From: an uncultured Acidobacteriia bacterium
Lineage (GTDB): Bacteria > Acidobacteriota > Terriglobia > Bryobacterales > Bryobacteraceae
DNA: 63,635 bases
Direction of reading: 5' to 3'
Assembly: GCA_903900705.1 (NCBI GenBank)
Contig: CAIUOG010000077.1
Span: 1-63,635 of the forward strand
The first letter of the stretch is position 1; every line of letters begins with the position of its first letter. A model generated the notes under the pieces. It made no database searches, was not told the origin of the DNA, and saw only the letters and a list, made by a program, of their open reading frames with translations. Shown piece after piece: positions 3,209-47,223 of the stretch. A program made the translations under genes and the position numbers.

Positions 3209-4498
3209 ATGTTGAAGAAACACCAGATGCGGCAGGCGGTCCGGCCTGTCAGCCTCGCTCTGATCTGCATCACGGTCTCCTGCGGCATGATCTCGTGCGG
3301 TAAAGAGAAGCCCAAAGAGGCGGAAGCCGAGGCTCCCACGCCGGTGCAGGTGGAAGACGCGCGCCGCGGTCCCATCGACCACATTGTGACGTCGGATGCG
3401 GTGCTCTATCCCATCAATCAGGCCAACGTCACGGCCAAGATCAGTTCCCCCATCAAGCGTATTCTGGTGAACCGCGGCGACCACGTGAAGGCGGGCCAGC
3501 TGGTGGCCGAACTCGAAAGCCGCGACCTGACTGCGGCGGCCGCCGAGAGCAAATACATGCTGGAGCAGGCGCAGGCCAACTACACGGCCGCCACCGGCGC
3601 CACCATGCTGGACGAAAAGACGAAGTCGGAGGCGGACGTCGCCTATGCCCGGCAGAATCTGGAAGCGGCGAAGAAGGTCTACGAAAACCGTGTGGAACTG
3701 GTGAAGCAGGGGGCGCTGGCGCAGAAGATTGCGGATGACGCGAAGGTCACCATGGTGCAGGCGCAGAGCCAGTTCGATACCGTGCAGCGCCATCTGCAGA
3801 CGCTGAACTCCACCGGTCAGCGCGAACAGACGCGCAGCGCGCAGGCGCAGATTGACGCCGCCAAAGCGCATCTGGAAACCGCGCAGGCGCAGCTTTCCTA
3901 CTCTCAGATCACCAGCCCGATTTCCGGCGTGGTGTCGGATCGCCCGGTCTATCCCGGCGAACTGGCCGCGCCCGGCACGCCTGTGATTTCCATCGTGGAT
4001 ATCTCGCAGGTGGTGGCACGGACGAATGTGCCGGTGAAGGATGCGCTGGCGATCAAGGTCGGCAGCCCGGCGACTATTCCCGGTCCGGAAGGCGATATCG
4101 CGGGCAAGGTGATTGTGGTCAGTCCGGCGGTTGACCCCGCGACCACCACGGTCGAGGTGTGGGTGCAGGCGCCGAATCCCGGGGAGAAGCTGAAGCCCGG
4201 CGGCACCGTGCACGTGACCATCAAGGCGGAAACGTTGAAGGACGTGATTATCGTCCGTGCGGCGGCACTGCTCAATTTCGATGAAGGCGGCCTGAAGGTG
4301 ATGGTGGTGACGGCCGACAATCTGGCGCATGAGCGGCGCATCACCACCGGGGTCCGGCAGGGTGAGAACGTTGAGATCGTTACAGGTCTGCAGGAAGGCG
4401 AGAAGGTGATCGTCGCCGGCGGCCTGGGCCTGGATGACAAGGCGAAGGTTAAGATCGTCGAGGCGCCTGCCGAAGATGCGGACGACGACGACAAGTAA
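3209..4498 (+). CDS. RND efflux periplasmic adaptor (HlyD/MFP family), probable lipoprotein
   Basis: A 429-residue membrane fusion protein linking the inner-membrane pump to the TolC-type channel. The N-terminus has a hydrophobic stretch ending in cysteines (C25 and C30), so it is probably a lipoprotein, although neither lipobox is perfect. A lipoyl/biotinyl-like half-motif (VNRGDHVKAGQLVAELES) precedes a long coiled-coil hairpin rich in A, Q, E and K. The second lipoyl half and beta-barrel follow (YSQITSPISGVVSDRPVYPG). The C-terminus ends in an unusual acidic tail, DADDDDK. The start codon follows the tolC-type stop with no gap, which implies translational coupling. The family is well established; the substrate is unknown. 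Confidence 0.92.
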   Translation: MLKKHQMRQAVRPVSLALICITVSCGMISCGKEKPKEAEAEAPTPVQVEDARRGPIDHIVTSDAVLYPINQANVTAKISSPIKRILVNRGDHVKAGQLVAELESRDLTAAAAESKYMLEQAQANYTAATGATMLDEKTKSEADVAYARQNLEAAKKVYENRVELVKQGALAQKIADDAKVTMVQAQSQFDTVQRHLQTLNSTGQREQTRSAQAQIDAAKAHLETAQAQLSYSQITSPISGVVSDRPVYPGELAAPGTPVISIVDISQVVARTNVPVKDALAIKVGSPATIPGPEGDIAGKVIVVSPAVDPATTTVEVWVQAPNPGEKLKPGGTVHVTIKAETLKDVIIVRAAALLNFDEGGLKVMVVTADNLAHERRITTGVRQGENVEIVTGLQEGEKVIVAGGLGLDDKAKVKIVEAPAEDADDDDK

Positions 4499-4516
4499 GG
4501 GGACCAGGATACCGAA

Positions 4517-7500
4517 ATGAGCGATCTTATTCCTGTCCCGCCGCCCGAACAGCCCGATCACTGGACGGCGCGCTTCTCGAAGCCCATCATCTTCGTGATT
4601 GTGGCGCTGGTGGTGATGGGCGCGTATCTGGCCCTGTCGATTCCGGTGGCGGTCTTCCCGTCCACCGATTTTCCACGCATTGTGGTCGGCGTTGATAACG
4701 GCGTTGCGCCCATCGATCAGATGCAGGTCACGGTGACCCGCAACATCGAAGAGGCCATGAACAGCGTACCGGGGCTGGAGACCGTGCGCTCGAACACGAG
4801 CCGCGGCTCGGCTGAGGTGAATCTGTTTTTCAACTGGAATGTGGATATGTTCCAGACGCTGCAATCGGTGAACGCGGCGATTGCGCGCGTGCAGCCCACG
4901 CTGCCCTCCACCGCGAAGCTGACGGCCAACCGCCTCACGTTCGCGGCCTTCCCGATCATCGGCTACAGTCTGACTTCCGATTCCATTCCGCAGACGACGC
5001 TCTGGGAACTGGCGAACTACACGATCAAACCCCGGCTGAACCGCGTCAACGGCGTGTCCATGGTGGTGATCCAGGGCGGGCAGCAGCCCGAGTTCCAGAT
5101 TGAGCCGGACCCGGCTAAACTGCTCGAAGCGCAGGTCACGGTGCCGGGGATTCTGGACGCCATCGGCCGCGGCAACATGATCGATTCGCCGGGGCTGCTT
5201 GAGAATAATCACGAACTGGAACTGGCGCTGGTCACCAGCCAGACGCGCAACCCGGCGGAGATTTCGAACATTGTGGTGAAGACGTCGCCCGCGGGTGTGC
5301 CGGTGCGGATCGGGGACATCGCGAAGGTGGGGCCATCCGTGATGCCGGTCTATACGATTGTGACCGCGAACGGCAAGCCGGCCGTGCTGCTGAACATCTT
5401 CCGGCAGCCCACCGGCAACACGGTGGAGGTGGCGGATTCCATCGCGAAGGAACTGGAATCCATCCGCAGGACTCTGCCTCCGGGCGTGAAACTGCAGGCG
5501 TTCTACGATCAGTCGCAGCTGGTGCGCGATTCCATCACCAGCGTGCGGGACGCGATTCTGATTGGTCTGGTACTGGCTGCCATTATCCTGGTTCTGTTCC
5601 TTCGGGACTGGGGCAGTTCCATTGTTGCCGGCCTGGTGATACCGGCTACGATCGCCATCACGCTGGTGGTGCTGAAGTGGCTGGGGGAAAGCTTCGACCT
5701 GATGACGCTGGGAGGTCTGGCGGCTGCGGTGGGGCTGGTGATTGACGATGCCATTGTGGTGGTTGAAAACATCGTGCTGCACCGCGATACGGGCCAGTCG
5801 CGCGGGGAGGCGATCCGCTCCGCGCTGGCGGAAATCCGCGTGCCGCTGCTGGGCTCCACCATTACGCCGATTGTGGTGTTTCTGCCGCTGGTTTCCATCA
5901 CCGGCGTGACGGGCACTTTCTTTCGCGCGCTGGCCGTGACGGTGGGAACATCTCTGCTGACCTCGCTCGCCCTTGCGTTGACGTGGACGCCGGCGCTGAG
6001 TCACTTCCTGCTGCGCCGGAAGCGTTCGGATACCGGCCCCATTGAACACGGGCATGCGACCTCCGGCTTCATGGGCCGCATGACGCGCGGGTATGTCCGC
6101 ATCCTGAGCTTCGCGCTGGCGCGCCCGTTCATCCTCGCGCTGGGGTGCGTCGCGCTGGTGGGTGTTTCCTTTCTCTGCTATCGCTCGCTGGGCAGTGATC
6201 TGTTGCCGGAGATGGACGAGGGCGGTTTCGTGCTCGATTACCTGATGCCCGCCGGTTCATCGCTCAAAGACACCAACGCGGTTCTGCTGGGCGTGGAAAA
6301 GATGCTTTCGAAGACGAAGGATGTGGCGGGAACCTCGCGCCGCACGGGGCTGCAGTTGGGCCTCGCCGCCGTCACGGAAGCCAATACGGGCGACTTCCTG
6401 GTCCGGCTCAAGCCGGCAGGGGAACGGCGTCCGGTGGAGGAAGTGATTTCCGATCTCCGGAAGAAGATCAACGAAAAATACCCGCAGCTCGACGTGGAAT
6501 TCATTCAGGTACTGCAGGACATGATCGGCGATCTCAGCAGTTCTCCGGAACCCATCGAAATCAAGCTCTTCGCGCAGGATCCGCTGCTGCTCAAGAAGTG
6601 GGCAACCAAGGTGGGCGACCGCATCAAGAAGATTCCGGTGGTAAAGGACGTGAAGAACGGCATCGAGAATACGGTGAGCGGTTCCGCCGTGATCATGCGG
6701 GTGGATCCGGTTCTGGCCGCGCGTTCCGGCTTTACGCCGCAGGAGATTGAACTGGATGCCAGCGCGATTCTGCAGGGCGAACCGGCCACCAACCCGGTGG
6801 TGGTGAATGATCGTTCCTACACGATCCGCGTTCGCTTCCCGGAAAGCACGCGCCTCAACATCGAAGAGGTGAAGAACACCATGATCGTGAGTGCGACGGG
6901 CAAGAACGCCACGCTCGGTTCGCTCGCGACGTTCGAAGACCAGGCGGGGCAGACTGAGGTTCACCGCGAGAATCTGCAGCGCGTGGTGGGCGTCACGGGG
7001 CGCTTTGAAGGCATCAGTCTGGGGAAGGGCATTCTGGAGGTGCAGAAGGCGGTGGCTGAACTGCAGTTGCCGCCGGAGATTCGTGTGGTTTACGGCGGCA
7101 CTTATGCCGAACAGCAGCGCTCGTTCCGCGATCTGGGCTTCGTGCTTTTCGTGGCCGTGGTGCTGGTGTTTATGGTGCTGCTGTTTGAGTTCGGAACCTT
7201 CGGCGCGCCCGCCGCGATTCTGGCGTCGGCTCTGCTCTCCACTTCCGGCGTGTTCCTGGCTCTGCTGGTCACCGGAACCACGTTCAATATCTCGTCGTTC
7301 ATGGGGCTGATCATGGTGATCGGCATCGTGGCGAAAAACGGCATTCTGCTGCTGGATGCGGATCAGCGCTTCCGGGCGGAAGGCTACAACGCGCATGACG
7401 CCATGATGGAAGCCGGGGAACGCCGGCTGCGTCCGATTCTGATGACGGCGATGGCGACGGTGGCCGGTATGGTGCCTCTGTCCCTGGCCATCGGAGCGGG

Positions 7501-7615
7501 TTCGCAGATGCTGCAGCCACTGGCGATCGCGGTGATCGGCGGCATTCTCGCGTCGATGGTGCTCTCGCTGATTGTGACGCCGGCCGTTCATTACTACCTG
7601 GGTGGCAAGCACTAA
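4517..7615 (+). CDS. RND efflux pump, inner-membrane transporter (AcrB/MdtB-like)
   Basis: A full-length pump of 1032 residues, the size expected for the HAE-1 type RND family. It has two repeats, each with an N-terminal membrane helix, a large periplasmic loop and a bundle of six helices. The motif GLVIDDAIVVVEN places adjacent aspartates at residues 410-411, matching the proton-relay pair in TM4 of AcrB; heavy-metal pumps differ here, so a drug or lipophile substrate is more likely. The second half carries the matching VIGIVAKNGILLLDADQ. It takes substrate from the periplasm or outer leaflet and passes it to the TolC-type channel using the proton gradient. A GC-rich hairpin follows the stop codon. 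Confidence 0.94.
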   Translation: MSDLIPVPPPEQPDHWTARFSKPIIFVIVALVVMGAYLALSIPVAVFPSTDFPRIVVGVDNGVAPIDQMQVTVTRNIEEAMNSVPGLETVRSNTSRGSAEVNLFFNWNVDMFQTLQSVNAAIARVQPTLPSTAKLTANRLTFAAFPIIGYSLTSDSIPQTTLWELANYTIKPRLNRVNGVSMVVIQGGQQPEFQIEPDPAKLLEAQVTVPGILDAIGRGNMIDSPGLLENNHELELALVTSQTRNPAEISNIVVKTSPAGVPVRIGDIAKVGPSVMPVYTIVTANGKPAVLLNIFRQPTGNTVEVADSIAKELESIRRTLPPGVKLQAFYDQSQLVRDSITSVRDAILIGLVLAAIILVLFLRDWGSSIVAGLVIPATIAITLVVLKWLGESFDLMTLGGLAAAVGLVIDDAIVVVENIVLHRDTGQSRGEAIRSALAEIRVPLLGSTITPIVVFLPLVSITGVTGTFFRALAVTVGTSLLTSLALALTWTPALSHFLLRRKRSDTGPIEHGHATSGFMGRMTRGYVRILSFALARPFILALGCVALVGVSFLCYRSLGSDLLPEMDEGGFVLDYLMPAGSSLKDTNAVLLGVEKMLSKTKDVAGTSRRTGLQLGLAAVTEANTGDFLVRLKPAGERRPVEEVISDLRKKINEKYPQLDVEFIQVLQDMIGDLSSSPEPIEIKLFAQDPLLLKKWATKVGDRIKKIPVVKDVKNGIENTVSGSAVIMRVDPVLAARSGFTPQEIELDASAILQGEPATNPVVVNDRSYTIRVRFPESTRLNIEEVKNTMIVSATGKNATLGSLATFEDQAGQTEVHRENLQRVVGVTGRFEGISLGKGILEVQKAVAELQLPPEIRVVYGGTYAEQQRSFRDLGFVLFVAVVLVFMVLLFEFGTFGAPAAILASALLSTSGVFLALLVTGTTFNISSFMGLIMVIGIVAKNGILLLDADQRFRAEGYNAHDAMMEAGERRLRPILMTAMATVAGMVPLSLAIGAGSQMLQPLAIAVIGGILASMVLSLIVTPAVHYYLGGKH

Positions 7616-7673: not shown

Positions 7674-9872
7674 TTACTCCTGGTTGAACAACTCGGCCCG
7701 GTTCACTTTCTCGCCCTTGAAGATCACGAACGAGATTGCCTCCGTGGCCTTCACATCCACCAGCGGATTGCCGTCCACAATCAGCAGCGTGGCATCCTTC
7801 CCTTTCTCGATGGAGCCGAAGCGGCTGTCGGCTCGCAGCGCCTTCGCGGCATTCAACGTTGCCGCCTGCAGCGCCACGGTGACGGGGATGCCGGCTTCCA
7901 CCCAGAGTTCCAGTTCATGCTGAATGGTGGGCCCGTGGAAAACCAGCGTATTGCCCGCATCGGACCCGGTGATGAGCGGCACACCGGCCTTCCAGGCCCG
8001 CAGCAGATTGTCCTTCGCGATGGCCATATCCACCGGATACTCGCCCACACGTTTCCGCATGGCGAGGGAATCGGGGGAATCCATCATCTTCTTCGTGGCG
8101 GCCATCATTTTCGCCGGCACGACCTGCTGTACCAGTGACCGGTTCAGCAGATCCATTTTGCCCGCGGCAAACTGCGGGAAGGCCTCGCCGACGCTCAGCG
8201 TGGGGTCGTAGGTGACGCCGGCCTTCGCCATGGCGGCGAAGAGTTCGTCGGGGATACGCTGACGGAAAGAGCCGTGCTCAATGCCGTTGACGGCGGCATG
8301 CAGTGCGTCTTCCACGTCCTTCGCATCGCCGGTGTGGACGACGATGGGCAGACCATCGGCCCGCGCCGCCGCCGCGATGGCGTTAAGAGTCTGCGGGTCC
8401 AGCCGGTTGTAAACGAGGCCGCCCGCGCCTGCTTCGAGAATGGCCTTGATGCCATCCACCCGGGCGGTCTTCAGCGCGTCGACGTTCAGTTTCGCTTCGG
8501 CGGCGGTCTTCGGCATGCGCAGGAACTGCGCTTCCATCTGCTGCCGCATGTTCTCCGGAATGTTGCGGAAGATTTCGGTGCCATGGCCGCCGGGGACGGT
8601 AAAGAGCGGGCCGACCATGAAGAACTCGGCCCCGAGCTTCTCGCCGCTGTTGACGGTTTCCCGGACTTTGAGCCCGCCATCAAGCAGATCGCCCACGCTC
8701 TTTACAGCGGTGACGCCGCTGTAAAGATAGGCGGCAAGTTCCCGTTCCGCGGCCTTGACGGAATCGTAGTCTTTCCAGTCCTCAATAAAGCCGCCGGGCG
8801 AGCCCAGGTGGACGTGCATGTCGATCAGCCCGGGCAGAATGGTCTTGCCGGCGGCTTCGATGGGCGCGGCGTTCACGTCCTTCGGTTCCGGGATCTTGTC
8901 GGTATAGATCTCGGCGATCTTCCCGTTCTTCACCAGCACCGCCCCGTTCACGATTACCTGGCCGTTGCCGACGAAGATGCGACCGTTGCGGATGAGCCAG
9001 GTGCGGGAGCGGTCGAGTTGCCGGTCGAGCACTTTGGTCTTGCGGACGTTATCTTTTGCGTGCGCCTGCCAGGAGCCGAGCACGACGAACGGCAGCAGCA
9101 CGGCGATCACCCAGAGTTTCGCGGCGGGCCGCATCTTTTCTTCCTTTTCCCAGCGGAAGAGTTTGACGCAGAGCAGCAGGCCGACAAGGGTGGTCAGCAG
9201 CAGCGCTCCCACGGCCTGCCAGTTGGCGGCGAGCGATTCCTGCCTGATGAGGATGCCCTGCAGTCCGGTCACCAGCCAGGTGGCGGGAATGAACTGCGTG
9301 GCGGTCTGCAGCCATGCCGGGAACATGGTGGGTGGGAAGGTGGCGCCGCTCAGGAAGAGCATCGTCATGTACGCAATCTGCACCATGATGCCGCTCTCCT
9401 GCATGGAGTTGACGACGGAAGCGATGATCAGTCCGAGTGACCGGATGGCCACCACGCCCAGCGCGATGAAGGTCAGCACCGTGGGGAGGTTGGGTGGCAC
9501 CGCCATCCCGTACCGCATGACGGAGATGGTCAGCATCAGCACCACATACGGCATGTAGATCACCAGGCCGGTGATGGTGGAGGCGACCAGCAGGGGGAGG
9601 GGTGAGATCGGGGCGACCTTGTAGCGCCGGAGGATGTTCGCTTCGCGTTCCTGCACGGCGCGCATGCCGCCACCGAACAGGCCATTTCCCAGGATGCCGA
9701 TGACTGAAACCATGGTGACCACCTGCGTAATCGCGCCGCCCTGTTCCGCATGGGACGACTGCGCGAAAACGAAGAAGAAGATCAGCGGCATCAGGTAGTT
9801 GAAGAAAATCACCACCTTCTGCCGGAAGGCGAGACGAATCTCGATTTTTATGAGTGCGAGGTAAATGTTCAT
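7674..9872 (-). CDS. ABC-2 permease fused in frame to an exported-type amidohydrolase
   Basis: A 732-residue chain with two complete parts. Residues 1-246 (from MNIYLALIKIEI) are an ABC-2 type permease of normal full length, with about six membrane helices. At M247 a second hydrophobic segment begins (MRPAAKLWVIAVLLPFVVLG, ending near AHA-KDN) that reads exactly like a signal peptide. The rest is a metal-dependent amidohydrolase of the imidazolonepropionase-like group: HVHLG at 353-357, then VVHTGDAKD, GIEHGS and TGSDAGN. No stop codon separates the parts. The internal ATG at 9134-9132 is preceded by AAGGAAGAAAAG, a good Shine-Dalgarno sequence with normal spacing, so the hydrolase could also be made alone. 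The start overlaps the ATPase stop as ATGA. The hydrolase should face the periplasm; its substrate is unknown. Confidence 0.88.
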   Translation of the reverse strand: MNIYLALIKIEIRLAFRQKVVIFFNYLMPLIFFFVFAQSSHAEQGGAITQVVTMVSVIGILGNGLFGGGMRAVQEREANILRRYKVAPISPLPLLVASTITGLVIYMPYVVLMLTISVMRYGMAVPPNLPTVLTFIALGVVAIRSLGLIIASVVNSMQESGIMVQIAYMTMLFLSGATFPPTMFPAWLQTATQFIPATWLVTGLQGILIRQESLAANWQAVGALLLTTLVGLLLCVKLFRWEKEEKMRPAAKLWVIAVLLPFVVLGSWQAHAKDNVRKTKVLDRQLDRSRTWLIRNGRIFVGNGQVIVNGAVLVKNGKIAEIYTDKIPEPKDVNAAPIEAAGKTILPGLIDMHVHLGSPGGFIEDWKDYDSVKAAERELAAYLYSGVTAVKSVGDLLDGGLKVRETVNSGEKLGAEFFMVGPLFTVPGGHGTEIFRNIPENMRQQMEAQFLRMPKTAAEAKLNVDALKTARVDGIKAILEAGAGGLVYNRLDPQTLNAIAAAARADGLPIVVHTGDAKDVEDALHAAVNGIEHGSFRQRIPDELFAAMAKAGVTYDPTLSVGEAFPQFAAGKMDLLNRSLVQQVVPAKMMAATKKMMDSPDSLAMRKRVGEYPVDMAIAKDNLLRAWKAGVPLITGSDAGNTLVFHGPTIQHELELWVEAGIPVTVALQAATLNAAKALRADSRFGSIEKGKDATLLIVDGNPLVDVKATEAISFVIFKGEKVNRAELFNQE

Positions 9873-10801
9873 CAGTCGCGCAGCCTCTTGCCTGTTAATT
9901 CGATAAAGACATCTTCGAGCGTGGGACGCTGCAGGTGGACATCTTCCAGCCCGAGCCCCCGCGCATCCACCCACTTCACGATTTCCACCAGTGAGCGCGC
10001 CGGGCGGGACGAGGCCACCGTGAGACTGCGGTGATCGTCACTCAGCGTGCTGCTGAGCGCCTCCGGCCAGGCCGGCATGGTGCTTTCGTCCATGGGCTGC
10101 TCACAGCGGATCTCAATGGTCGACTTGCCCGCGCTGCGCTCCACCAGTTCCCGCGGTGTGCCGATGGCGATCACTTTTCCCGAATCCACGATGGCGACCC
10201 GGTCGCAGAGCCGCTCGGCCTCTTCGATGTAGTGAGTTGTCATCAGGATGGTGCGGTGGTCCGCCTTCATGCCCTCGATGAGCGAGTGGATTTCCAGGCG
10301 GACCTGCGGGTCAAGACCCTGTGTGGGTTCGTCGAGGAACAGCAGAGACGGGTCATTGATCATGCCCAGAGCGATGGCGAGCCGCTGCTTCTGGCCACCG
10401 GAAAGCGTTGAATAAAAAGCCTCGCGCTTTTCCGACAACTGCAGGCGTTTGAGCAGCGCATCGGGGTCGAGAGTCCTGCTGTAAAAGGAGCCGAAGAGTT
10501 GCAGGGCTTCGATCACCTTCATCTTGTCCGGCAGGTTGGTGGACTGGAGGCAGACGCCGATGCGGTCCTTCAGTTGTTTGGTTTGTTTGTCGGGATCGAG
10601 GCCGAGTACGGTCACCTCGCCGGCGGTGCGCTGGCGGATTCCTTCCAGGATCTCAACGGTGGTGGTTTTCCCTGCGCCGTTCGGGCCCAGCAGTCCGAAG
10701 ACCTCGCCGGTGCGAACTTCGAAATCGACGCCTTTGACGGCCTCGAAATCGCCGTAGCTTTTTCGTAATCCCTGAACGGAGATTGCGTTCTGTTGGCTCA
10801 T
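9872..10801 (-). CDS. ABC transporter ATP-binding protein (ABC-2/NatA-DrrA type)
   Basis: A 309-residue ATPase partner of the permease fusion. It has Walker A GPNGAGKT (39-46), signature LSGGQ (133-137), Walker B LLFLDEP (153-159), and the H-loop in TTHYIEEAE. The C-terminal region, with the motif PTLEDVFIELTGK, is typical of DrrA-like exporters of lipids or antibiotics. I chose the ATG giving MSQQNAISVQ because sequence farther upstream in the same frame is low-complexity and not conserved-looking. A TACTCT hexamer lies 13 bases upstream. The gene overlaps the permease by one base (ATGA), so ATPase and permease are coupled in translation. It powers export by ATP hydrolysis in the cytoplasm. 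Confidence 0.92.
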   Translation of the reverse strand: MSQQNAISVQGLRKSYGDFEAVKGVDFEVRTGEVFGLLGPNGAGKTTTVEILEGIRQRTAGEVTVLGLDPDKQTKQLKDRIGVCLQSTNLPDKMKVIEALQLFGSFYSRTLDPDALLKRLQLSEKREAFYSTLSGGQKQRLAIALGMINDPSLLFLDEPTQGLDPQVRLEIHSLIEGMKADHRTILMTTHYIEEAERLCDRVAIVDSGKVIAIGTPRELVERSAGKSTIEIRCEQPMDESTMPAWPEALSSTLSDDHRSLTVASSRPARSLVEIVKWVDARGLGLEDVHLQRPTLEDVFIELTGKRLRD

Positions 10802-38951: not shown

Positions 38952-38976
38952 TTTTGCATGATAGCTTTTGCATGAT
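38951..38976. repeat. Tandem 12-bp direct repeat at the thioesterase start
   Basis: CTTTTGCATGAT occurs at 38951-38962 and again at 38965-38976, a 14-base period. The copy near the gene supplies the TATCAT -10-like box and the GTG start on the minus strand. It looks like a small local duplication. Confidence 0.75.
38958..38963 (-). promoter_or_regulatory. Putative -10 element 6 bases before the thioesterase GTG
   Basis: TATCAT, then GCAAAA, then the GTG at 38951. It arises within the tandem repeat. No Shine-Dalgarno sequence is present. Confidence 0.45.
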
Positions 38977-39024
38977 GGCCGGCGGGCATACAAAAGGGCT
39001 TCGCTACAATCGGATGACGTCAAG

Positions 39025-40719
39025 ATGCGAATTCTCTGCACCGGCCTGTTGGCGATTCTGTTACCTTTCGCGGCCGCGCAGACTCCACCGGTGCCATCGA
39101 ATGGGGCGGAAATCGCAACTCAGGATGAGACGGTCACTTTCGAATCGCGCACCAGCGTGGTGCAGGTGCCCGTGGTGGTCAGGGACCGGACCGGCGTATT
39201 GGCGGAGCGCCTGACGAAGGAAGACTTTCAGCTTTTCGACAAGGGCAAGCCACAGACCATCTCCCGCTTTTCGGTGGAACGCGCGGGCGCGGTTGCGCCG
39301 CCGCAAGTCCTGAAAACAGCAACGCGCACTCACTCCTCCGGAGAGGTTCCGGAAGACGCGCCGCAGCGATTTGTCAGCCTGTTTTTTGACGACGTTAATC
39401 TGAGCATCGGGGACCTGGCCGCTGCCCGCGCCGCGGCGGAGAAATTTCTGGATAGCGGTCTGCGCCCGGGTGACCGGCTATCTGTCGCCACAACATCGGG
39501 CGCCGGGCAGATGTCCTTCACGGATGATGTTGCGCAGGTCCGCAAGGCATTGGAACTGTTGCGCCCCCGCGCCGTCTCAAAATCCACCGGCGCGGAATGT
39601 CCCTCGGTAACGTTCTATCTGGCCGATCTGATTATCAACAGGCACGACAACCAGGCGCTCTATCTGGTGGAGCGCGAAGCCTACGCCTGCATGAGGCTGA
39701 CGAGCATCGATGAAGCGGAGCAGATTTCAAGATCTTCCGCCGCCGTGGCGCTCGCCGCCGGCCGGCAGGAAAGCAGTCTCGCTTTCGATGCGTTGAAGAG
39801 CCTGATCCGCCGCATGAGCGGGATGCCCGGGCAGCGCGTCATCCTGATGATCTCGCCCGGCTTTCTGCGACTCGATGAGAACCTGGTGGAGGAGTCCACG
39901 CTGATTGATCGTGCGGTGAAAGCGGGCGTCACGATCAATACGCTCGATGCGCGCGGTCTCTACGTGGATGCCACCAACAGCCCGGCGCAGCGCATTCTTT
40001 CCAGTTCCGTGGCGCTCGAAAAAGAGCAGTACGCGCGCGCCGCCAACCGCCTTGCTTCCGATGTGATGGCCGAACTGGCCGCCGGGACCGGCGGGGCATT
40101 TTTCGAAAACAGCAATGACCTCACTGCCGGCGTGAAGCAACTGGCATCCGCGCCGGAGGTTGTCTATGTCCTCAGCTTCTCGCCGACGAGCCTGAAGACG
40201 GACGGCGGCTACCATCCGCTCCGGGTGACTCTGCGAAATCCTGCCGGTTTTTCCGTTAGGGCAAGGGCTGGCTACTATGCGCCGAATCACCTCGCCAATG
40301 GCGCCGAAGAGGCGCGCGAGGAAATCACGCAGACGCTCTTCTCGCGCGAGGAACTGCACGATATTCCCGCAGCCATGCACACGGAATTTCTCAAGACCAG
40401 CGATGACGAGGCGCGGCTCACGGTGACCACCCGCATCGATGTGCGGCGACTGCGTTTTCGGAAGGCGGAAGGCCGCAATGGCAATGAGTTGCTGGTGGTA
40501 TCCGGGCTGTTCGACCGCAATGGCAACTTCCTGAATTCAGTGACGAAAAGAATTACCATGCGCCTGAAAGACGAGACGCTGCAAGGTGGCCTGAACGGGC
40601 GTGTCGCGGTCCATGCGGACTTTCGCATTGCGCCCGGCCGCTATCTGCTGCGGCTGGTCGTTCGGGACGCCGAAGGCAAAATGATGACCGCTCAGAACGG
40701 AGCGGTGGAGATTCCCTGA
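39025..40719 (+). CDS. VWFA-related acidobacterial protein (TIGR03436 type), first copy
   Basis: A 564-residue exported protein. The chosen ATG gives the signal peptide MRILCTGLLAILLPFAAAQ; TACAAT lies 14 bases upstream. The mature part opens with an acidobacterial pattern, RTSVVQVPVVVRDRTG and LTKEDFQLFDKGKPQTISRF, followed by a von Willebrand A domain (FVSLFFDDVNLSIGDL) with a degenerate metal site. Then come a helical part and AELAAGTGGAFFENSNDLTA and VYVLSFSPTSLKTDGGYHPL. These families are expanded in Acidobacteria; a role in protein-protein contact outside the membrane is likely. A homologue follows three bases later. Confidence 0.88.
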   Translation: MRILCTGLLAILLPFAAAQTPPVPSNGAEIATQDETVTFESRTSVVQVPVVVRDRTGVLAERLTKEDFQLFDKGKPQTISRFSVERAGAVAPPQVLKTATRTHSSGEVPEDAPQRFVSLFFDDVNLSIGDLAAARAAAEKFLDSGLRPGDRLSVATTSGAGQMSFTDDVAQVRKALELLRPRAVSKSTGAECPSVTFYLADLIINRHDNQALYLVEREAYACMRLTSIDEAEQISRSSAAVALAAGRQESSLAFDALKSLIRRMSGMPGQRVILMISPGFLRLDENLVEESTLIDRAVKAGVTINTLDARGLYVDATNSPAQRILSSSVALEKEQYARAANRLASDVMAELAAGTGGAFFENSNDLTAGVKQLASAPEVVYVLSFSPTSLKTDGGYHPLRVTLRNPAGFSVRARAGYYAPNHLANGAEEAREEITQTLFSREELHDIPAAMHTEFLKTSDDEARLTVTTRIDVRRLRFRKAEGRNGNELLVVSGLFDRNGNFLNSVTKRITMRLKDETLQGGLNGRVAVHADFRIAPGRYLLRLVVRDAEGKMMTAQNGAVEIP

Positions 40720-40721
40720 AT

Positions 40722-42668
40722 ATGCGACGAACTTCGGTTTTCCTCCTTTTGATTGCGACGGGTTTCGGCGGGCGTGCCCAGCAGACGGGCTCCGTCATCC
40801 GGTCGGAAACGCGCCTGGTGCAGGTGGAAGCGACGGTGACCGATAAGAAGGGGAATCCGGTGCGCGGCCTCACGCAGAAGGATTTCAAGGTCTTCGAAGA
40901 CAACCGGGAGCAGGCCATCACGGCGTACTCCGCCGAATCCGGCGCGCAGGATCGCGCTCTGCAGGATCGCAATGCGCAGCACATTGTTCTGTTCTTCGAT
41001 AATTCCACTGCCGGGGCGGCGCAGGCGTTCGCGCGGCAGGCGGCGGCGAAGTTTATCGATGCGGGTGCTTCGCCGAAGCGGATGATCGCGATTGCGGATT
41101 TCAGCGCGTCTCTCACGATGACCCAGAACTTCACGGCGGATCCCATTCTGTTGAAAAAGGCCGTCGGCGGAACCAGGCTTACTGGCGCGGCCACCGCGCC
41201 TTCTCTGGGAGCGGCGAAGGCATCACAGGATAGTTACGCCGCCAACACCGCGCTGGGCGCATTGCAGACGCTGGCAAAGGGCCTGGCTTCCGTGCCGGGC
41301 CGCAAGGCGATCATCCTGGTGTCCTCCGGCTTCAGTGACGCCGCTGATGCCCGGGCCGGAATTGCAGCTACCATCAACGCCTGCAACCGCGCGAATGTAG
41401 CGATCTATCCGGTTTCATCGTCCCTGACGGAGATGCTGGCCGTGGAAGCCACCGGAGGCACCAGCGACAGTGCTCCGGCGACCGGTTTGGGTGGACGCCG
41501 CAATGCGCTCCGCAACGGCGATTCGCTGGATGATTCCGCTTCCGGCACGCAGCAATCCCTGCTCGCGCTGGCCAACGGCACGGGTGGCTTTCTCACCACC
41601 AATACGGGTGATCTGCTGAAGGCCTTTGAGAAGGTCGGACGCGAACAGCAGGAATTCTATCTGCTGGGTTATGCGCCTTCGAAAGAATCGCCCGCGGGAA
41701 CCTGCCACGTGCTGCGGGTGCGCGTGGAAAATCCGAATGTCGCGGTTCGCTCCCGCGCCGGATACTGCGATGCGGCGGCGCAGGAAGTGCCCGCGGTTCC
41801 CTCGGGCGCGGATCTCGAAGCCCGGCTGAACAGCGGCGCCGCCGTGACCGTGACCGGCGCCATGATGCAGGCTCCGCACTTCTACACCGCCGCCGATACG
41901 GCCCGCGTGCATCTCGCGCTGCAGTTGCCTCCGGGTGCGATTCAGTTTGCGAAGGACAAAGGGAAATACCGCGCAGAGGTCAATATTATCGGGATTGCCA
42001 CGCTTCCCGATGGCACCGTGCGTTCGCGTTTCAGCGATACGCTGCCGCTGGAGTTTGATGAAAAACAGCAGGCGGATGACGCGACTCTGCGTCCCTTCCA
42101 ATACGAAAAGCAGTTCGCGATGGTGCCGGGCGCTTACACTCTGAAGGTCGCCTTCAGCAGCGGCGCGGACCGCTTTGGCAAGCTCGAAATGCCTTTGAAT
42201 GTCGAGGCGTGGTCGCCTGCGAAATTCCTGCTGAGCGGCCTGTCACTCAGCGCCGTGGTTCGCTCGACAAAGGGCGCTGCCGCGGGTGGGGAGGAGCGCG
42301 TGCAACTGGTGGCGAATGGTTTCGAAATCATGCCATTCGGGGCGAACCGGTTTCAGAAGTCCCGCAAAGCTTACCTCTATGCGGAGGTCTATGAACCCGC
42401 CATGGCGCAGGCCGGTATGAAGCCGGAGGAAATTCCCGCCGTGGGTGTGCGCATGGAACTGCTGGAAGCGGCGACCGGCAAAGTGAAGAAAGACTTCGGG
42501 CTGACCCGTCTGCGCATTCCGCCGCTCACCGGCGGCGCGGCAATTCCCATGGGCCTCGTGATCACAGCGCCGGAACTCGAAGCCGGCGACTACAAACTTC
42601 GACTCTCCGCACTGGATGCCACCGGACGGCAGGCAGTGCGGATCGTCGATATTCACCTCGAAAACTAA
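40722..42668 (+). CDS. VWFA-related acidobacterial protein (TIGR03436 type), second copy
   Basis: A 648-residue paralogue of the preceding protein. It has a signal peptide (MRRTSVFLLLIATGFGGRAQ), the same opening domain (LVQVEATVTDKKGNPVRGLT, KDFKVFEDNREQAITAYSAE), then a VWA domain with HIVLFFDNSTAG, LANGTGGFLTTNTGDLLKAF and FYLLGYAPSKESPAGTCHVL. A longer beta-rich C-terminal domain is added, not found in the first copy. It lies three bases after the first gene with no ribosome site visible, so the two are co-transcribed. Its end overlaps the convergent permease/peptidase gene by four bases. Confidence 0.88.
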   Translation: MRRTSVFLLLIATGFGGRAQQTGSVIRSETRLVQVEATVTDKKGNPVRGLTQKDFKVFEDNREQAITAYSAESGAQDRALQDRNAQHIVLFFDNSTAGAAQAFARQAAAKFIDAGASPKRMIAIADFSASLTMTQNFTADPILLKKAVGGTRLTGAATAPSLGAAKASQDSYAANTALGALQTLAKGLASVPGRKAIILVSSGFSDAADARAGIAATINACNRANVAIYPVSSSLTEMLAVEATGGTSDSAPATGLGGRRNALRNGDSLDDSASGTQQSLLALANGTGGFLTTNTGDLLKAFEKVGREQQEFYLLGYAPSKESPAGTCHVLRVRVENPNVAVRSRAGYCDAAAQEVPAVPSGADLEARLNSGAAVTVTGAMMQAPHFYTAADTARVHLALQLPPGAIQFAKDKGKYRAEVNIIGIATLPDGTVRSRFSDTLPLEFDEKQQADDATLRPFQYEKQFAMVPGAYTLKVAFSSGADRFGKLEMPLNVEAWSPAKFLLSGLSLSAVVRSTKGAAAGGEERVQLVANGFEIMPFGANRFQKSRKAYLYAEVYEPAMAQAGMKPEEIPAVGVRMELLEAATGKVKKDFGLTRLRIPPLTGGAAIPMGLVITAPELEAGDYKLRLSALDATGRQAVRIVDIHLEN

Positions 42669-45600
42669 GGCTGCTTCGTGACGTCGATCATATTGTCGTC
42701 CGCAATCCGGTCGATCAGTTTGTTGTACGGATCGATCCCGGCGCGCGTGGGCTCACGATCCACCACAATGGTGAAGGTCTGGTGCTCCTGCGTCAGCTTC
42801 TCGCGCTTCATATAAAGCGGCTTCTCCTCGTCTTTCTTGCCGCTGAAGACGCCGATATCAATGTAGTCCGCCAGCGCCATGGGCGACTCCACGCCGTTGC
42901 CATCGGCCTGCACCTTGCGGGCCTGCACGCTCAGCGTGACTTTGTATTTCCCGTCGGGAGTCTTCTGTGAAGTGGCTGAGACCGCCTTGTTGTCATAAAG
43001 GACGATGCGATTAAAGCCATCGTCGATCAGATACCCAAGTTCGGGCGGCGTCTGCGCGCGGAGCGCCTCCACCAGCATCCGGGTATCGGGATAAGGTTCG
43101 TCGAGACTGTTCCCGGCGTTCTTATACCGGTACTGCATCAGGAAGTTGTGAAGCGCGAGATTGATTTTCTCTTCGCCCACGTAGTCGGCCAGCGTGTACA
43201 TGATCTGGCCGCCCTTCTGATACCAGACGTAGGGTTCGCGCTGCACCAGCGCAAGCGGCGGTTCATGGCGAACCTCACCGGCGCGGCCGCGCAGGTACTG
43301 GTCCAGATAGTGGCGGAGCACCTTGTGCATGTAGTCCTTGCCATACTTCTGCTGCATGACCATGTAGGCCGAGTATTGCGCCAGCGTTTCCGACATCATG
43401 TTGGAACCCTGAACCATCCCTCCGATCAGCTGATGCCCCCACCACTGGTGGCCCAGTTCATGCGCAGTGACGAAGTAAGTCAGGTCCACATCGTCCTTGT
43501 TCTCGATGCGCGTAATGAAACCGATTGATTCCGAGAACGGCACCGTGTTCGGGAAAGACTGCGCAAACGAGCGGTAACGCGGGAATTCCATGATGCGAAA
43601 CTGTTTGAACTGGTAGGGGCTGAAGTTCTTCTCGAAATACTGCAGCCCGGCGCGCGAACTGGCCAGCATCTCGTCCACGTTGTAGGGGTGCGCCTTGTCG
43701 TAATAGACTTCCAGATTCACGGGACCGTTCACGCCCGCGTAGACATCCTTCCGGATGGTGTACCGGCCGGAGAGCCAGGCGGCGAAATCCGCAATGCGGG
43801 TCTCACCCATGCTGTATTCGTAGTAGTTGCGGCCATCTTTGCGCCACGTGCGCACCGGGTAGCCGGGCGCAATCGCGGTCTGGTCGCCGGAGGTGCTGAC
43901 GATGGTGTGGAACGTGATCCAGTCGGAGTTGGCAACGAACAGATTGGTGCGGGAGAAGCGCTCATCGCCGCGCGGCGCCATTTCCTGCAGAGGCCCGAGG
44001 TTTTCTTCGCGTCGCCGCCGCGGGTCTTCGAGTTCCATGTTCGGGTCATAGCCGATCACGGGGAAGAAACCGGCGTCAAAGAACGTGCCGTTGAAGGCGA
44101 ATTCAGCGCGCTCATTGCCATCCCGGAAGCCCCGGGTGAGGTGGCTCGAACGGAACGTCATCCGGACGATCTCACCGGGATTCAGCGGCTGTGCGAAGGC
44201 ATAGATGGAATACGCATTACGTGGGGCGCGGCTCACCAGCGTGACCGGGCGATCAAACTGCACGTTCGACACCGCTTCGTTCGAATCGGAAAGATGAATC
44301 TGCGAAATGGGCGAGGAACTCTTGTTCTGCAGCGTCATGCGGCCGGTGGCTTCGTACGAACGGCGCTCCGGATAGATGTCCACTGTGGCATCCACCGCGA
44401 TGGTTTTGGGCTGCGCCAGAAGCCTGTATTTGGAATAGGCCTTCTCGTACTCCGCCTGCAGATGCCGCCGGTCTTTGGCCGTCAGATACTCATTCAGAAC
44501 GTGGCCGTTGTAGTAATACCAGACGCCTGCGCCGAGAGCGCCTGCCAGGAAAAGCAATGCAACCGGAGCCAGGCGGGGCGCGCGTGCCAGGGCCATGCGG
44601 GTGCGGGCTGAGAACGAATCCTCCGAGCCTCGTCGGGTATAGGCGATCGACACGATACCCAGGAACGCGAAGATGGAGAACCAGTAGAGAATCGCCCAGA
44701 ACAAAGGCGCAACATAGTGGCCGTAGCCATTCATGTCGGAATAGGTGTAAGAGGGAATCGCGCCTGGCAGATAGAGCGTATTCTCCAGGCCGAAATTGAA
44801 CAGGATCGGCTGCATGACGAAGATGCCGACCACAATGCCATGGCCCATGAACTTATTCGGAACCGTGGTCTGGATGAACAGAGCAAAGAAGATGAAGGCG
44901 AGAATCTGCGGGAACGTCACCACGAAGAGCTCCTGCAGATATTGCAGAACTTCGTAGTGGTAGTAGCCCGCGATGGTCTGCATCGCCATGCCGCACAGCA
45001 TCGTGATCGCCAGCAGAATCACTTCCACGAAGGCGATCGCCGTGAACTTCGAAAGCCAGTCGATGGAACCGGCCATGGGCAGGGCGTCGTGAATGCCGTC
45101 GAAACGGTTATCGCGCTCGCGCCACACCATCTCCGCCGCGTACAGGCTGGCCACGATGTAGAAGAACAGGGTTGCGCTTCCCTCCACCGCCTGCAGCATC
45201 AGATAAGTCACCGGCCAGACGTTTTGTCCGGCGACGCGCCCCGCGAAGTGTCCGTTGTTCACGGCGAACGCGATCAGCAGGCCCACAATCGCCCAGAACG
45301 TGATTTCACTGGTGATGTTGCGGATGCGAAGCCTGGTAAGCGAGAGGAACTGCGCGAATGATGTGGCAAGGCCGAAGTGCTGCCCCACACGCGGCAGTGG
45401 CGCTGTGACAAGCGAACGGACGGGCCGGTCTTCCTGTTCAAGTTGCCGCGCCTTGGCCGCACGCTTCCCCTGGGATTTCGCTGTGAGCGCTTCCACAGAC
45501 ATGGGGAACAACGCCCAGAGGCCTGCGAGCGAGACCAGTCCGACGCCCGTCCACAGAAGGCGGTTGAAGAGAAACACGCCGGGCGAATTGCCACTGAAAT

Positions 45601-46321
45601 CCCACGGCAGCAGCAGCGTGTTCTTCTCCACCACTGTCCAGTAGCGCGTGATGTTGTCGAACAGGATGAAGCCCAGGGGATCGAGAATGCCGGTCCAGAA
45701 ATGTTCCAGCGAACGGTTGGCGGAGTAGACGGTGATCCCGATGAGGTACACCATGAACAGAGCCACCCCCTGCAGGTAGACCACGATAATCCGGCGCGTG
45801 AGCGCCGCCACCGTGAAGAACAGCGAGCCCAGAAAGAAGATCTGGATCACTGTGATGGAGAGGAATGGCTGCAGATACCAGGAGAGCTGGTTCGGCGCGA
45901 TGCGGGCATGGTCGGCCCAGGGCGCCAGGGTGCCGAAGAAGGTCCCGAAAATCATGCCGGAGAAGACGAGCACCGTGGTCACGAAAGACCCGGCCCAGCG
46001 TCCGCCCAGATAGGCCAGTTTGGAGACCGGCTTGGTGAAAAGAATCTGGCAGGTATCGCGCTGGAAGTCGCGCAGCATGGATGTTCCGAAGATGGCGGCG
46101 ATCACGATGGTGCCGAACAGGCAGGCGCCCAGATCATTCATGGAGTTTGCCCACGGGCCGTTCAGCAACACCTTGCCGTTGGAAGTTCCCACCGGGCCGA
46201 AACTCTCCGAAGCGACGGAAAGAAATGCGAACAGGAACCAAAGGAGGAAATAGATCCAGGTGGAGAAGCTCTTCATCCGGAAGCGCATCTCAAAGGCAAA
46301 GAACTCGCGGAACATGTACAT
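42665..46321 (-). CDS. ABC transporter permease fused to an M1-family aminopeptidase
   Basis: A 1218-residue membrane protein. The first 600 or so residues hold two ABC-2-like sets of membrane helices, e.g. FSTWIYFLLWFLFAFLSVAS and TFWAIVGLLIAFAVNNGHFA. The C-terminal 600 residues are an M1 zinc peptidase: FPRYRSFAQSFPNTVPFSES replaces the GAMEN exopeptidase motif, HELGHQWWGH is at 954-963, the third zinc ligand is probably E978 (MMSETLAQ), and the catalytic tyrosine is in VWYQKGGQIMY. This fusion is a known family in Acidobacteria and Bacteroidetes. The peptidase probably faces the periplasm. The ATPase gene ends two bases upstream. Confidence 0.9.
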   Translation of the reverse strand: MYMFREFFAFEMRFRMKSFSTWIYFLLWFLFAFLSVASESFGPVGTSNGKVLLNGPWANSMNDLGACLFGTIVIAAIFGTSMLRDFQRDTCQILFTKPVSKLAYLGGRWAGSFVTTVLVFSGMIFGTFFGTLAPWADHARIAPNQLSWYLQPFLSITVIQIFFLGSLFFTVAALTRRIIVVYLQGVALFMVYLIGITVYSANRSLEHFWTGILDPLGFILFDNITRYWTVVEKNTLLLPWDFSGNSPGVFLFNRLLWTGVGLVSLAGLWALFPMSVEALTAKSQGKRAAKARQLEQEDRPVRSLVTAPLPRVGQHFGLATSFAQFLSLTRLRIRNITSEITFWAIVGLLIAFAVNNGHFAGRVAGQNVWPVTYLMLQAVEGSATLFFYIVASLYAAEMVWRERDNRFDGIHDALPMAGSIDWLSKFTAIAFVEVILLAITMLCGMAMQTIAGYYHYEVLQYLQELFVVTFPQILAFIFFALFIQTTVPNKFMGHGIVVGIFVMQPILFNFGLENTLYLPGAIPSYTYSDMNGYGHYVAPLFWAILYWFSIFAFLGIVSIAYTRRGSEDSFSARTRMALARAPRLAPVALLFLAGALGAGVWYYYNGHVLNEYLTAKDRRHLQAEYEKAYSKYRLLAQPKTIAVDATVDIYPERRSYEATGRMTLQNKSSSPISQIHLSDSNEAVSNVQFDRPVTLVSRAPRNAYSIYAFAQPLNPGEIVRMTFRSSHLTRGFRDGNERAEFAFNGTFFDAGFFPVIGYDPNMELEDPRRRREENLGPLQEMAPRGDERFSRTNLFVANSDWITFHTIVSTSGDQTAIAPGYPVRTWRKDGRNYYEYSMGETRIADFAAWLSGRYTIRKDVYAGVNGPVNLEVYYDKAHPYNVDEMLASSRAGLQYFEKNFSPYQFKQFRIMEFPRYRSFAQSFPNTVPFSESIGFITRIENKDDVDLTYFVTAHELGHQWWGHQLIGGMVQGSNMMSETLAQYSAYMVMQQKYGKDYMHKVLRHYLDQYLRGRAGEVRHEPPLALVQREPYVWYQKGGQIMYTLADYVGEEKINLALHNFLMQYRYKNAGNSLDEPYPDTRMLVEALRAQTPPELGYLIDDGFNRIVLYDNKAVSATSQKTPDGKYKVTLSVQARKVQADGNGVESPMALADYIDIGVFSGKKDEEKPLYMKREKLTQEHQTFTIVVDREPTRAGIDPYNKLIDRIADDNMIDVTKQP

Positions 46322-46323
46322 GG

Positions 46324-47223
46324 CTAGTTCTTTCCTGAATGGCGGGCCGCGTTGTGTCTGGAAAGTTCGAGGAAGTAGACGTCTTCGAGACCGCAGGGCA
46401 CGCTCCGGAAGTTCCCGCCCGGTGAGTACGGTGCAAAGACGCGGACTTCGTGACGCCCACCGACCAGATGCGTACTCACCACCTGAAGTTCGGCTTCAAG
46501 CTCCCGCATCTCGTCATCGGTATCCACAATGCGCGACCAGATCTGCCCCTCCAGCGCGGCCAGGGCCTCATCCGGCGCGCCTTCCAGCAGCACTTCGCCG
46601 GAAGCGATAATCGCCATGCGGGCGCAGAGTTCACGCACATCCTCCACAATGTGGGTGGAAAGAATCACGGTCACGTCCCGTCCGATGGACGAGAGCAGAT
46701 TCAGGAAGCGGTTGCGCTCAGCGGGATCCAGGCCGGCCGTGGGCTCATCCACAATAATCAGCTTCGGGCTCGCCAGCAGCGCCTGCGCGATGCCGAAGCG
46801 CTGCTTCATGCCGCCGGAGTAGGTGGAGAGCGCCTTCTTCCTCACATCCCACAGGTTGGTCTGTTGCAGCAGGGCTTCCACCATCTGCTTCCGTTCGCCG
46901 GAATTCGTGATGCCCTTCAGAATCGCGAGGTGATTCAGCATGTCGAGCGCCGACATCTTCGGATAAACACCGAATTCCTGCGGCAGGTAGCCCAGCACTT
47001 TTCGCACTTCGTCCTTCTGCTTCAGCACGTCGATGCCGTCCAGCATGATGGAACCGGAATCGGGATCCTGCAGCGTGGCAATGGTGCGCATGAGGGAACT
47101 CTTGCCGGCTCCGTTCGGCCCCAGCAGCCCGAACATGTTGTTGCCGATGGTCAGAGAGAGGTTTTTCAGCGCGTGTACGCCGTTGGGATAGGTTTTGGAT
47201 AATCCGGTGATCGTCAGTGCCAT
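46324..47223 (-). CDS. ABC transporter ATP-binding protein
   Basis: A 299-residue ATPase with Walker A GPNGAGKS, signature YSGGMKQRFG, Walker B LIIVDEPTAGLDP and H-loop STHIVEDV. The C-terminal extension, after VLLEGAPDEALAALEG, is longer than the minimal fold and may contact the large permease. It partners the permease/M1 fusion that begins two bases downstream, so the two are translated together. TATACT lies 13 bases before the ATG. It energises either export or a mechanochemical step for the peptidase. Confidence 0.92.
   Translation of the reverse strand: MALTITGLSKTYPNGVHALKNLSLTIGNNMFGLLGPNGAGKSSLMRTIATLQDPDSGSIMLDGIDVLKQKDEVRKVLGYLPQEFGVYPKMSALDMLNHLAILKGITNSGERKQMVEALLQQTNLWDVRKKALSTYSGGMKQRFGIAQALLASPKLIIVDEPTAGLDPAERNRFLNLLSSIGRDVTVILSTHIVEDVRELCARMAIIASGEVLLEGAPDEALAALEGQIWSRIVDTDDEMRELEAELQVVSTHLVGGRHEVRVFAPYSPGGNFRSVPCGLEDVYFLELSRHNAARHSGKN

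What the first reader, a model, noticed from the sequence alone, without database searches (positions are those of the whole stretch)
7674..9872. ABC-2 permease fused to an exported-type amidohydrolase at an ancestral gene boundary
Residues 1-246 are a complete ABC-2 permease. M247 starts a textbook signal peptide, then a complete amidohydrolase. The internal ATG (9134) still has an AAGGA Shine-Dalgarno sequence at normal spacing, so two genes have merged by loss of one stop while keeping the second start. This could give two products: a membrane-tethered hydrolase inside the exporter and a free periplasmic hydrolase. The ATPase lies immediately upstream. A hydrolase in the permease chain suggests that the exported compound is processed as it leaves, or that the transporter drives the hydrolase.
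Basis: partly seen in the sequence, partly recalled or inferred. Interest (0 to 1): 0.72.

Follow-up and report, generated by a model that had tools for sequence, protein, structure and literature searches.

The report
Exporter carrying a fused outside enzyme
In a family of acidobacteria a membrane export pump appears to carry a peptidase-like enzyme built into the same protein chain on its outer side, and in many relatives that enzyme has lost its active site yet stays attached and conserved, which suggests that it is a working part of the pump.

Summary
The 732-codon frame is real. It is not a recent merger that kept a second start. In 132 of 200 genomes of the family a listed match includes the permease, and the junction is gap-free in 89 of 93 aligned relatives. 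The "signal peptide" is a conserved seventh helix (P261 in 94 of 94), kept in permeases without the hydrolase. Residue 247 is Met in 15 of 94, and the Shine-Dalgarno-like run is as common without a start codon as with one, because EKEEK codons are purine-rich. So this is probably one 7-helix permease with an extracytoplasmic amidohydrolase and an ATPase gene directly upstream.

The unexpected result concerns the active site. All six metal ligands are present here and in 74 of 133 sequences. They are damaged in 52, of which 35 are also shortened in the barrel. The permease tree needs about 20 changes (13 to 21). Damaged modules remain under purifying selection (omega 0.05-0.27 in 17 hand-picked pairs). 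The module therefore probably serves the exporter beyond catalysis. Similar fusions exist elsewhere in Acidobacteriota; so does an operon with the parts as separate genes. An ABC-2/M1-peptidase fusion lies in this same window.

The parts
7674..9872 (-). 732-aa fused protein: ABC-2 permease with a seventh helix plus amidohydrolase module
9135..9872 (-). residues 1-246: six-helix ABC-2 permease core
   Evidence: Pfam ABC2_membrane 5-208; helices in the model
9135..9158 (-). residues 239-246 FRWEKEEK: loop whose codons create the Shine-Dalgarno-like run
   Evidence: F239 and R240 in 94 of 94, W241 in 93 of 93 filled
9132..9134 (-). ATG of M247; not a conserved start
   Evidence: start codon at this place in 23 of 94, ATG in 15 of 94
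   Evidence: K252 92, W254 91, P261 94, F262 92, G266 93 of 94; helix 249-273 in the model, pLDDT under 50 from 257 on; hydropathy peak centred at 256-262
9003..9056 (-). residues 273-290: charged linker, R284 and R288 in 89 of 91
7677..9002 (-). residues 291-732: amidohydrolase module
   Evidence: Pfam Amidohydro_1; best PDB match 2qs8 by sequence and by fold
8808..8816 (-). H353-x-H355 metal ligands
   Evidence: full set HHKHHD in 74 of 133
8445..8447 (-). K476, the lysine expected to be carboxylated (role recalled)
8334..8336 (-). H513 metal ligand
8274..8276 (-). H533 metal ligand
7959..7961 (-). D638, the expected catalytic aspartate (role recalled)
8193..8612 (-). residues 421-560: central barrel, mostly missing in the 35 shortened relatives
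   Evidence: occupancy 0.03-0.23 per ten residues over 431-550, about 0.5 at the two edges
7929..7937 (-). HGP (646-648), kept where the active site is lost
   Evidence: HG in 50 of 52 damaged and 71 of 74 intact
9872..10801 (-). ABC ATPase gene (309 aa) overlapping the permease start by one base (TGATG)
   Evidence: ABC_tran and DrrA1-3_C; an ATPase ORF is upstream on the same strand in 129 of 132 loci

Best explanation
This is the membrane subunit of an ABC-2 (type V-like) exporter. Its permease has seven rather than six helices, so the C-terminus leaves the cytoplasm and displays a metal-dependent amidohydrolase on the outer face of the inner membrane. Two copies would pair with two ATPases made from the upstream gene, giving a pump with two outside hydrolase modules. 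In this species the metal site is complete, so the module probably still cleaves a peptide-like or amide bond in what is exported or nearby. Across the family the module is often kept after the metal site has decayed, so it probably also has a non-catalytic job in the exporter, such as holding substrate, gating the exit or docking a partner.

Shown: the single frame, the conserved junction and helix, the complete ligand set here, the repeated ligand loss, and purifying selection on the damaged module. Inferred: topology, stoichiometry, substrate class, activity and the non-catalytic role.
For: The junction is gap-free in 89 of 93 relatives and helix 7 is conserved. The model has separate helices at 218-243 and 249-273 (mean pLDDT 66). 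Permeases with a hydrophobic stretch after FRW but no hydrolase exist: L107, L109, L110 and L112, and further off L114-L120, L126 and L129 (read by eye). No hydrolase match lies beside L107, L109, L110 or L112. An ATPase is upstream in 129 of 132.

Ligands: complete in 74 of 133, damaged in 52 (motifs of 18 of the 52 checked by eye). On the permease-half tree at least 20 changes are needed, 18 with branches under 80 collapsed and 13 with those under 95 collapsed. Omega of the hydrolase part is 0.05-0.27 in 17 damaged pairs. The beta-sandwich ends and the HG motif are kept.

Fusions at the same place occur in other lineages (L180, L181, L201, L195), all four with HHKHHD. Separate hydrolase, ATPase and permease genes sit in a row in L196 and L197. 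A second exporter-peptidase fusion lies in this window at 42665-46321.
Against: No experiment supports the topology or any activity. The charge pattern does not help: 5 K/R before helix 7 (residues 238-253) but 7 after it (272-292), where the positive-inside rule would want fewer. A hydropathy scan at 1.6 does not pick up the model's helix 160-175. The model is of modest confidence and under 50 across 257-288.

Four family loci (L107, L109, L110; L063 by an in-frame stop) and L112 have the permease without the hydrolase in frame, so the module is not needed everywhere. The hydrolase part evolves faster in damaged pairs than in intact ones (0.05-0.27 against 0.06-0.15 in the 11 of 13 intact pairs that could be computed), so constraint is relaxed though not gone. 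The 13 named relatives are all metagenome assemblies. The pairs for omega were chosen by hand from the tree, and some dS values are near saturation.
Confidence: 0.58

Rival explanations
1. Made as one chain but cut by signal peptidase after A272, so that the hydrolase is released as a free periplasmic enzyme and helix 7 stays with the permease.
For: The window has AHA just after the hydrophobic stretch. An AxA-like pair (-3 in ASTVGIL, -1 in AGS) is present in 61 of 92, and A, S or G is at -1 in 90 of 130.
Against: In 40 of 130 the residue at -1 does not suit cleavage, mostly Thr. Helix 7 is conserved in sequence (P261 in 94 of 94), unlike a signal peptide. The linker beyond the site is also conserved (R284, R288). 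Release would not explain keeping dead modules.
Confidence: 0.2
2. Ribosomes start again at M247 and make a second, exported hydrolase.
For: ATG with an AAGGA-like run at a suitable distance in the window; residues 247-272 resemble a signal peptide. Among the 13 named relatives 7 have ATG and 1 has GTG at this codon.
Against: A start codon is present at this place in only 23 of 94, and in none of the five closest named relatives. The Shine-Dalgarno-like run is as common without a start (64 of 71) as with one (20 of 23). The Met frequency of 0.12 lies within the range of other mixed I/L/V/M columns, 0-0.61.
Confidence: 0.08
3. The hydrolase is a passenger: the fusion is neutral and the module is decaying wherever its activity is not needed.
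For: Repeated ligand loss and deletions. Loss of the hydrolase in L107, L109, L110 and L112, which are nested within the fused clade on the permease tree. Higher omega in damaged pairs. Broken frames in L063, L049 and L177.
Against: Damaged modules stay in frame in 51 of 52, including sets of sister species, keep HG in 50 of 52, keep the beta-sandwich ends, and show omega of 0.05-0.27.
Confidence: 0.14

Closest known systems
ABC-2 permease / M1 aminopeptidase fusions (a RefSeq product name recalled from memory; one lies in this window at 42665-46321)
   Same: An ABC-2 membrane region at the N-terminus, a peptidase domain at the C-terminus of the same chain, and the ATPase gene directly upstream.
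   Different: Unrelated hydrolase (M1 against amidohydrolase); 1218 aa with a much longer membrane part.
Amidohydrolase peptidases: Xaa-Pro dipeptidase 2qs8, Arg/Lys carboxypeptidase Cc2672 (3mtw), ochratoxin-degrading amidohydrolase ADH3 (8ihs)
   Same: Among the best sequence and fold matches.
   Different: Separate enzymes at 24-25% identity in the fold search; here the enzyme is part of an exporter chain, and the NCBIfam Xaa-Pro dipeptidase model is far below cut-off (158.2 of 500 bits).
DrrAB-type drug exporters (TIGR01188, TIGR01247)
   Same: Same kind of ATPase and permease; DrrA is the best NCBIfam match of the ATPase.
   Different: Both below cut-off (269.7 of 312.45 and 47.8 of 223.05 bits); DrrB has no seventh helix or hydrolase (recalled).
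Peptidase-containing ABC transporters with an N-terminal C39 domain (recalled)
   Same: Peptidase built into an exporter chain.
   Different: C39 is a cysteine peptidase on the cytoplasmic side of a different ABC exporter type; here the module is a metal hydrolase predicted to lie outside.

Membership tests
ABC-2 exporter | ABC2_membrane domain above the curated cut-off | tested here: met
   65.8 bits against 26.9
ABC-2 exporter | partner ATPase gene alongside | tested here: met
   ABC_tran in the overlapping upstream gene; upstream in 129 of 132 loci
ABC-2 exporter | transport activity and direction | not testable with these tools
   none
DrrA/DrrB | score over the NCBIfam cut-off | tested here: not met
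   269.7 of 312.45 and 47.8 of 223.05 bits
Amidohydrolase superfamily | Amidohydro_1 domain above cut-off | tested here: met
   94.6 bits against 25
Amidohydrolase superfamily | complete metal ligand set (HxH, K, H, H, D; set recalled) | tested here: met
   HHKHHD in the window
Xaa-Pro dipeptidase (NF051886) | score over cut-off | tested here: not met
   158.2 of 500 bits
Dual-start gene giving two products | conserved internal start codon | tested here: not met
   23 of 94 have any start codon at 247; 8 of the 13 named loci do
Secreted protein with cleavable signal peptide | conserved signal-peptidase site | tested here: inconclusive
   AHA here; A, S or G at -1 in 90 of 130
Exporter-hydrolase fusion as in ABC-2/M1 | hydrolase domain in the permease chain with the ATPase upstream | tested here: met
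Exporter-hydrolase fusion as in ABC-2/M1 | hydrolase domain outside the cytoplasm | not testable with these tools
   charge pattern undecided; inferred from helix count

The most novel reading that the evidence does not exclude
An enzyme has been turned into a structural part of an ABC exporter. The amidohydrolase module was recruited as an active outside hydrolase and then lost its metal site about 20 times independently while staying in the chain under selection, so its lasting role is a non-catalytic cap, substrate holder or docking platform. The same kind of exporter joined this hydrolase family in at least two lineages independently (favoured by the permease tree, not decided by the hydrolase tree).
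Probability: 0.42. Interest if true: 0.75.

Novelty: new variant of a known kind. Interest (0 to 1): 0.58.

Why it matters
The repeated loss of the active site in a module that stays attached is a natural experiment in enzyme-to-accessory evolution, with active, single-ligand-loss, fully dead and shortened stages all in one bacterial family. It makes a direct test possible: does the outside module of an ABC-2 exporter affect transport without catalysis? It also shows two kinds of peptidase-type module (amidohydrolase and M1) fused to ABC-2 permeases in one window, which hints at peptide-like exported substrates. No paper on this fusion appeared in the listings, which search only the open-licence PMC library.

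Tried and rejected
Recent stop loss: rejected, since the same junction runs across the family.

M247 as a start: rejected as a conserved feature, though 8 of the 13 named relatives have ATG or GTG there.

A single origin of all fusions: the permease-half tree (47 rows) rejects one clade of all fused rows (p-AU 3.6e-5), but the hydrolase-half tree (40 rows) does not (p-AU 0.415). Two or three independent fusions are likely but not proven; one old fusion followed by separations is not excluded. L121, L123 and L125 carry a different C-terminal region after the helix; not pursued.

Misalignment as the cause of "lost" ligands: the motifs of 18 of the 52 damaged members were printed, and ten damaged members were run through Pfam (all ten still hit Amidohydro_1 above its cut-off). 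The losses are real at the sequence level in those looked at.

Rows dropped. From the listing I did not fetch four partial hits (G053, G168, G158, G107). The 68 genomes without a listed permease match were not examined; the listing was cut at about E 1e-41. From the 133, four rows without the hydrolase in frame (L063, L107, L109, L110) and three cut or frameshifted rows (L049, L162, L178) were left out of the intact/lost count. L177, whose permease frame is broken, was counted as damaged; leaving it out changes no tree count. In one search I read 29 loci besides the window, out of 175 other genomes with a match, so further fusions in the phylum may have been missed.

Structure: one AlphaFold job on 13 sequences gave only pLDDT 66, so I draw no interface from it. 

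Full report
What is there. On the minus strand, 9872-7674 encodes one open frame of 732 residues. Pfam finds an ABC-2 permease at 5-208 and an amidohydrolase at 344-721. The nearest solved structure by sequence and by fold is the Xaa-Pro dipeptidase 2qs8. An ABC ATPase gene lies immediately upstream and overlaps the start as TGATG. No second copy was found in its genome; the next match to the permease part is 26% identical.

The fusion is old. Of 200 genomes of the same family searched with the whole chain, 132 (the window's own included) have a listed match that includes permease residues; 84 of these match end to end in one piece, one of them with a stop inside, and the relatives among them are 47-79% identical (my count from the listing, which is cut at about E 1e-41). 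The 13 named relatives are metagenome assemblies labelled Acidobacteriia, Terriglobia or Bryobacterales. I gathered 133 sequences: the window, one locus from each of 127 other family genomes, a second copy in one of them, and four further named assemblies.

The junction. In the first 94 aligned (counts), F239 and R240 are invariant and W241 is in all 93 that have the column. Then follows a hydrophobic helix with K252 (92), W254 (91), P261 (94), F262 (92) and G266 (93). A cleavable signal peptide would not be expected to conserve such a pattern. Residue 247 is I31, L25, V17, M15, T4, F2. A start codon stands there in 23 of 94. An SD-like 4-mer precedes it in 20 of those 23 and in 64 of the 71 without a start codon, so the run comes from the conserved EKEEK codons. 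The Met frequency is within the range of other mixed I/L/V/M columns. Against this reading, 7 of the 13 named relatives have ATG and one has GTG; the five closest have none.

Helix 7 without the hydrolase. The helix persists in permeases that have no hydrolase beside them: L107 (same genus), L109 and L110 in the family, and L112 in another family of the class, which ends right after the helix. On the permease tree L107, L109, L110 and L112 lie within the fused clade (99/100), so they look like losses. More distant unfused permeases also have a hydrophobic stretch after FRW, for example L115 with EKKLWALSV against AAKLWVIAV here. Others stop at FRW, among them the permeases of L196 and L197, and the separate hydrolases of L196 and L197 that align there have a hydrophobic N-terminal stretch of their own. 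So the ultimate origin of the helix is less sure than its present place. The model has helices at 218-243 and 249-273 (mean pLDDT 66, under 50 from 257 to 288). The charges do not settle the topology: 5 K/R lie before helix 7 and 7 after it. That the C-terminus is outside is inferred from a seventh helix following a six-helix ABC-2 core, whose C-terminus is cytoplasmic in known members (recalled).

The active site. The window keeps H353, H355, K476, H513, H533 and D638. Of 133 sequences, 74 keep all six; 4 have no hydrolase in the permease frame (in L063 because of an in-frame stop); 3 are cut or frameshifted; and 52 lack one or more ligands, 51 of them in one frame with the permease and one (L177) with a break inside the permease. 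The damaged set is graded: L069 and L071 each lost one ligand, L077 and L148 two, L082 and L083 all six at near full length, and 35 are shortened to 564-689 residues, mostly within residues 421-560. Shortened forms keep both ends of the module, including the beta-sandwich segments and HGP; HG is kept in 50 of the 52 damaged and 71 of 74 intact. On the permease-half tree, intact versus damaged needs at least 20 changes, 18 if branches under 80 are collapsed, 13 if those under 95 are; with loss only, the numbers are 21, 20 and 13. The tree is a quick one with 44 weak forks of 130, so the number is approximate. In 17 hand-picked pairs of damaged relatives the hydrolase part has omega 0.05-0.27; in the 11 of 13 intact pairs where it could be computed it is 0.06-0.15. 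Constraint is somewhat relaxed but far from absent.

Neighbours and other lineages. The ATPase is upstream in 129 of 132 loci; two of the other three lie at contig ends, and L084 is a divergent long branch without it. Among 396 genomes of the phylum searched with residues 1-340, 176 had a match; outside the family L113 matched well past the junction without a stop, and L135 proved to be a fusion when its frame was read. Frames were read for 29 loci only. A search of 147 genomes of the class of L113's genome added L181 and L184, and a search of 147 genomes of the class of L135's genome found only itself. These fusions have all six ligands. In L196 and L197 two separate hydrolases, a PqqD/M50-like protein (my reading of the sequence of L196; no Pfam hit), the ATPase and a permease are consecutive. 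The permease-half tree groups L180 and L181 with unfused permeases and rejects one clade of all fusions; the hydrolase-half tree does not reject it.

Mechanism. I take the chain as one subunit of a 2+2 ABC-2 exporter whose seventh helix puts a hydrolase module outside. Catalysis is likely in this species because the metal site is complete. That the module outlives its metal site in many relatives argues for an additional non-catalytic role in the pump. Substrate, direction, topology and stoichiometry are inference.

Known or new. The closest precedent is the ABC-2/M1-aminopeptidase fusion, a name I recall from RefSeq; one sits in this window at 42665-46321 with its own ATPase. Eight literature searches in the open-licence PMC library listed no paper on the amidohydrolase fusion (I saw only the listings). 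I file it as a new variant of a known kind.

Noticed in passing
window 42665-47223 (-): A 1218-aa ABC-2 membrane region fused to an M1 aminopeptidase domain, with an ABC ATPase gene immediately upstream: a second exporter-peptidase fusion in the same window.
   Followed up: partly
L196 2524-8043 (+) and L197 2369-8007 (-): A run of two separate amidohydrolases, a PqqD-like/M50-like protein (read by eye), ATPase and permease; could be an export and processing set for a peptide product.
   Followed up: partly
L202 2-4969 (-); L198, L199, L200: In other Acidobacteriota the helix-7 permease (fused in L202, unfused in the others) is followed by a gene with TPR repeats and a histidine kinase domain (PF06580), suggesting a sensor linked to the exporter.
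   Followed up: no
L202 2252-4969 (-): The fused permease-amidohydrolase of G574 carries an additional C-terminal CIA30 domain (PF08547); some stand-alone hydrolases match beyond residue 725 and may share it (not tested).
   Followed up: no
L121, L123, L125: Permeases with a helix after FRW followed by about 300 residues of partly proline-rich, unidentified sequence, a different C-terminal module in the same place.
   Followed up: no
window 3209-7615 (+): HlyD-like and AcrB-like genes (by eye) converge on the fused gene; an AcrB gene (Pfam) is also convergent next to the permease in L205 of the same genus, but none was seen beside the fused gene in L209.
   Followed up: partly
window 38968-42668 (+): Two tandem long ORFs with VWA-like sequence (recalled resemblance, not searched) beside the M1 fusion.
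   Followed up: no
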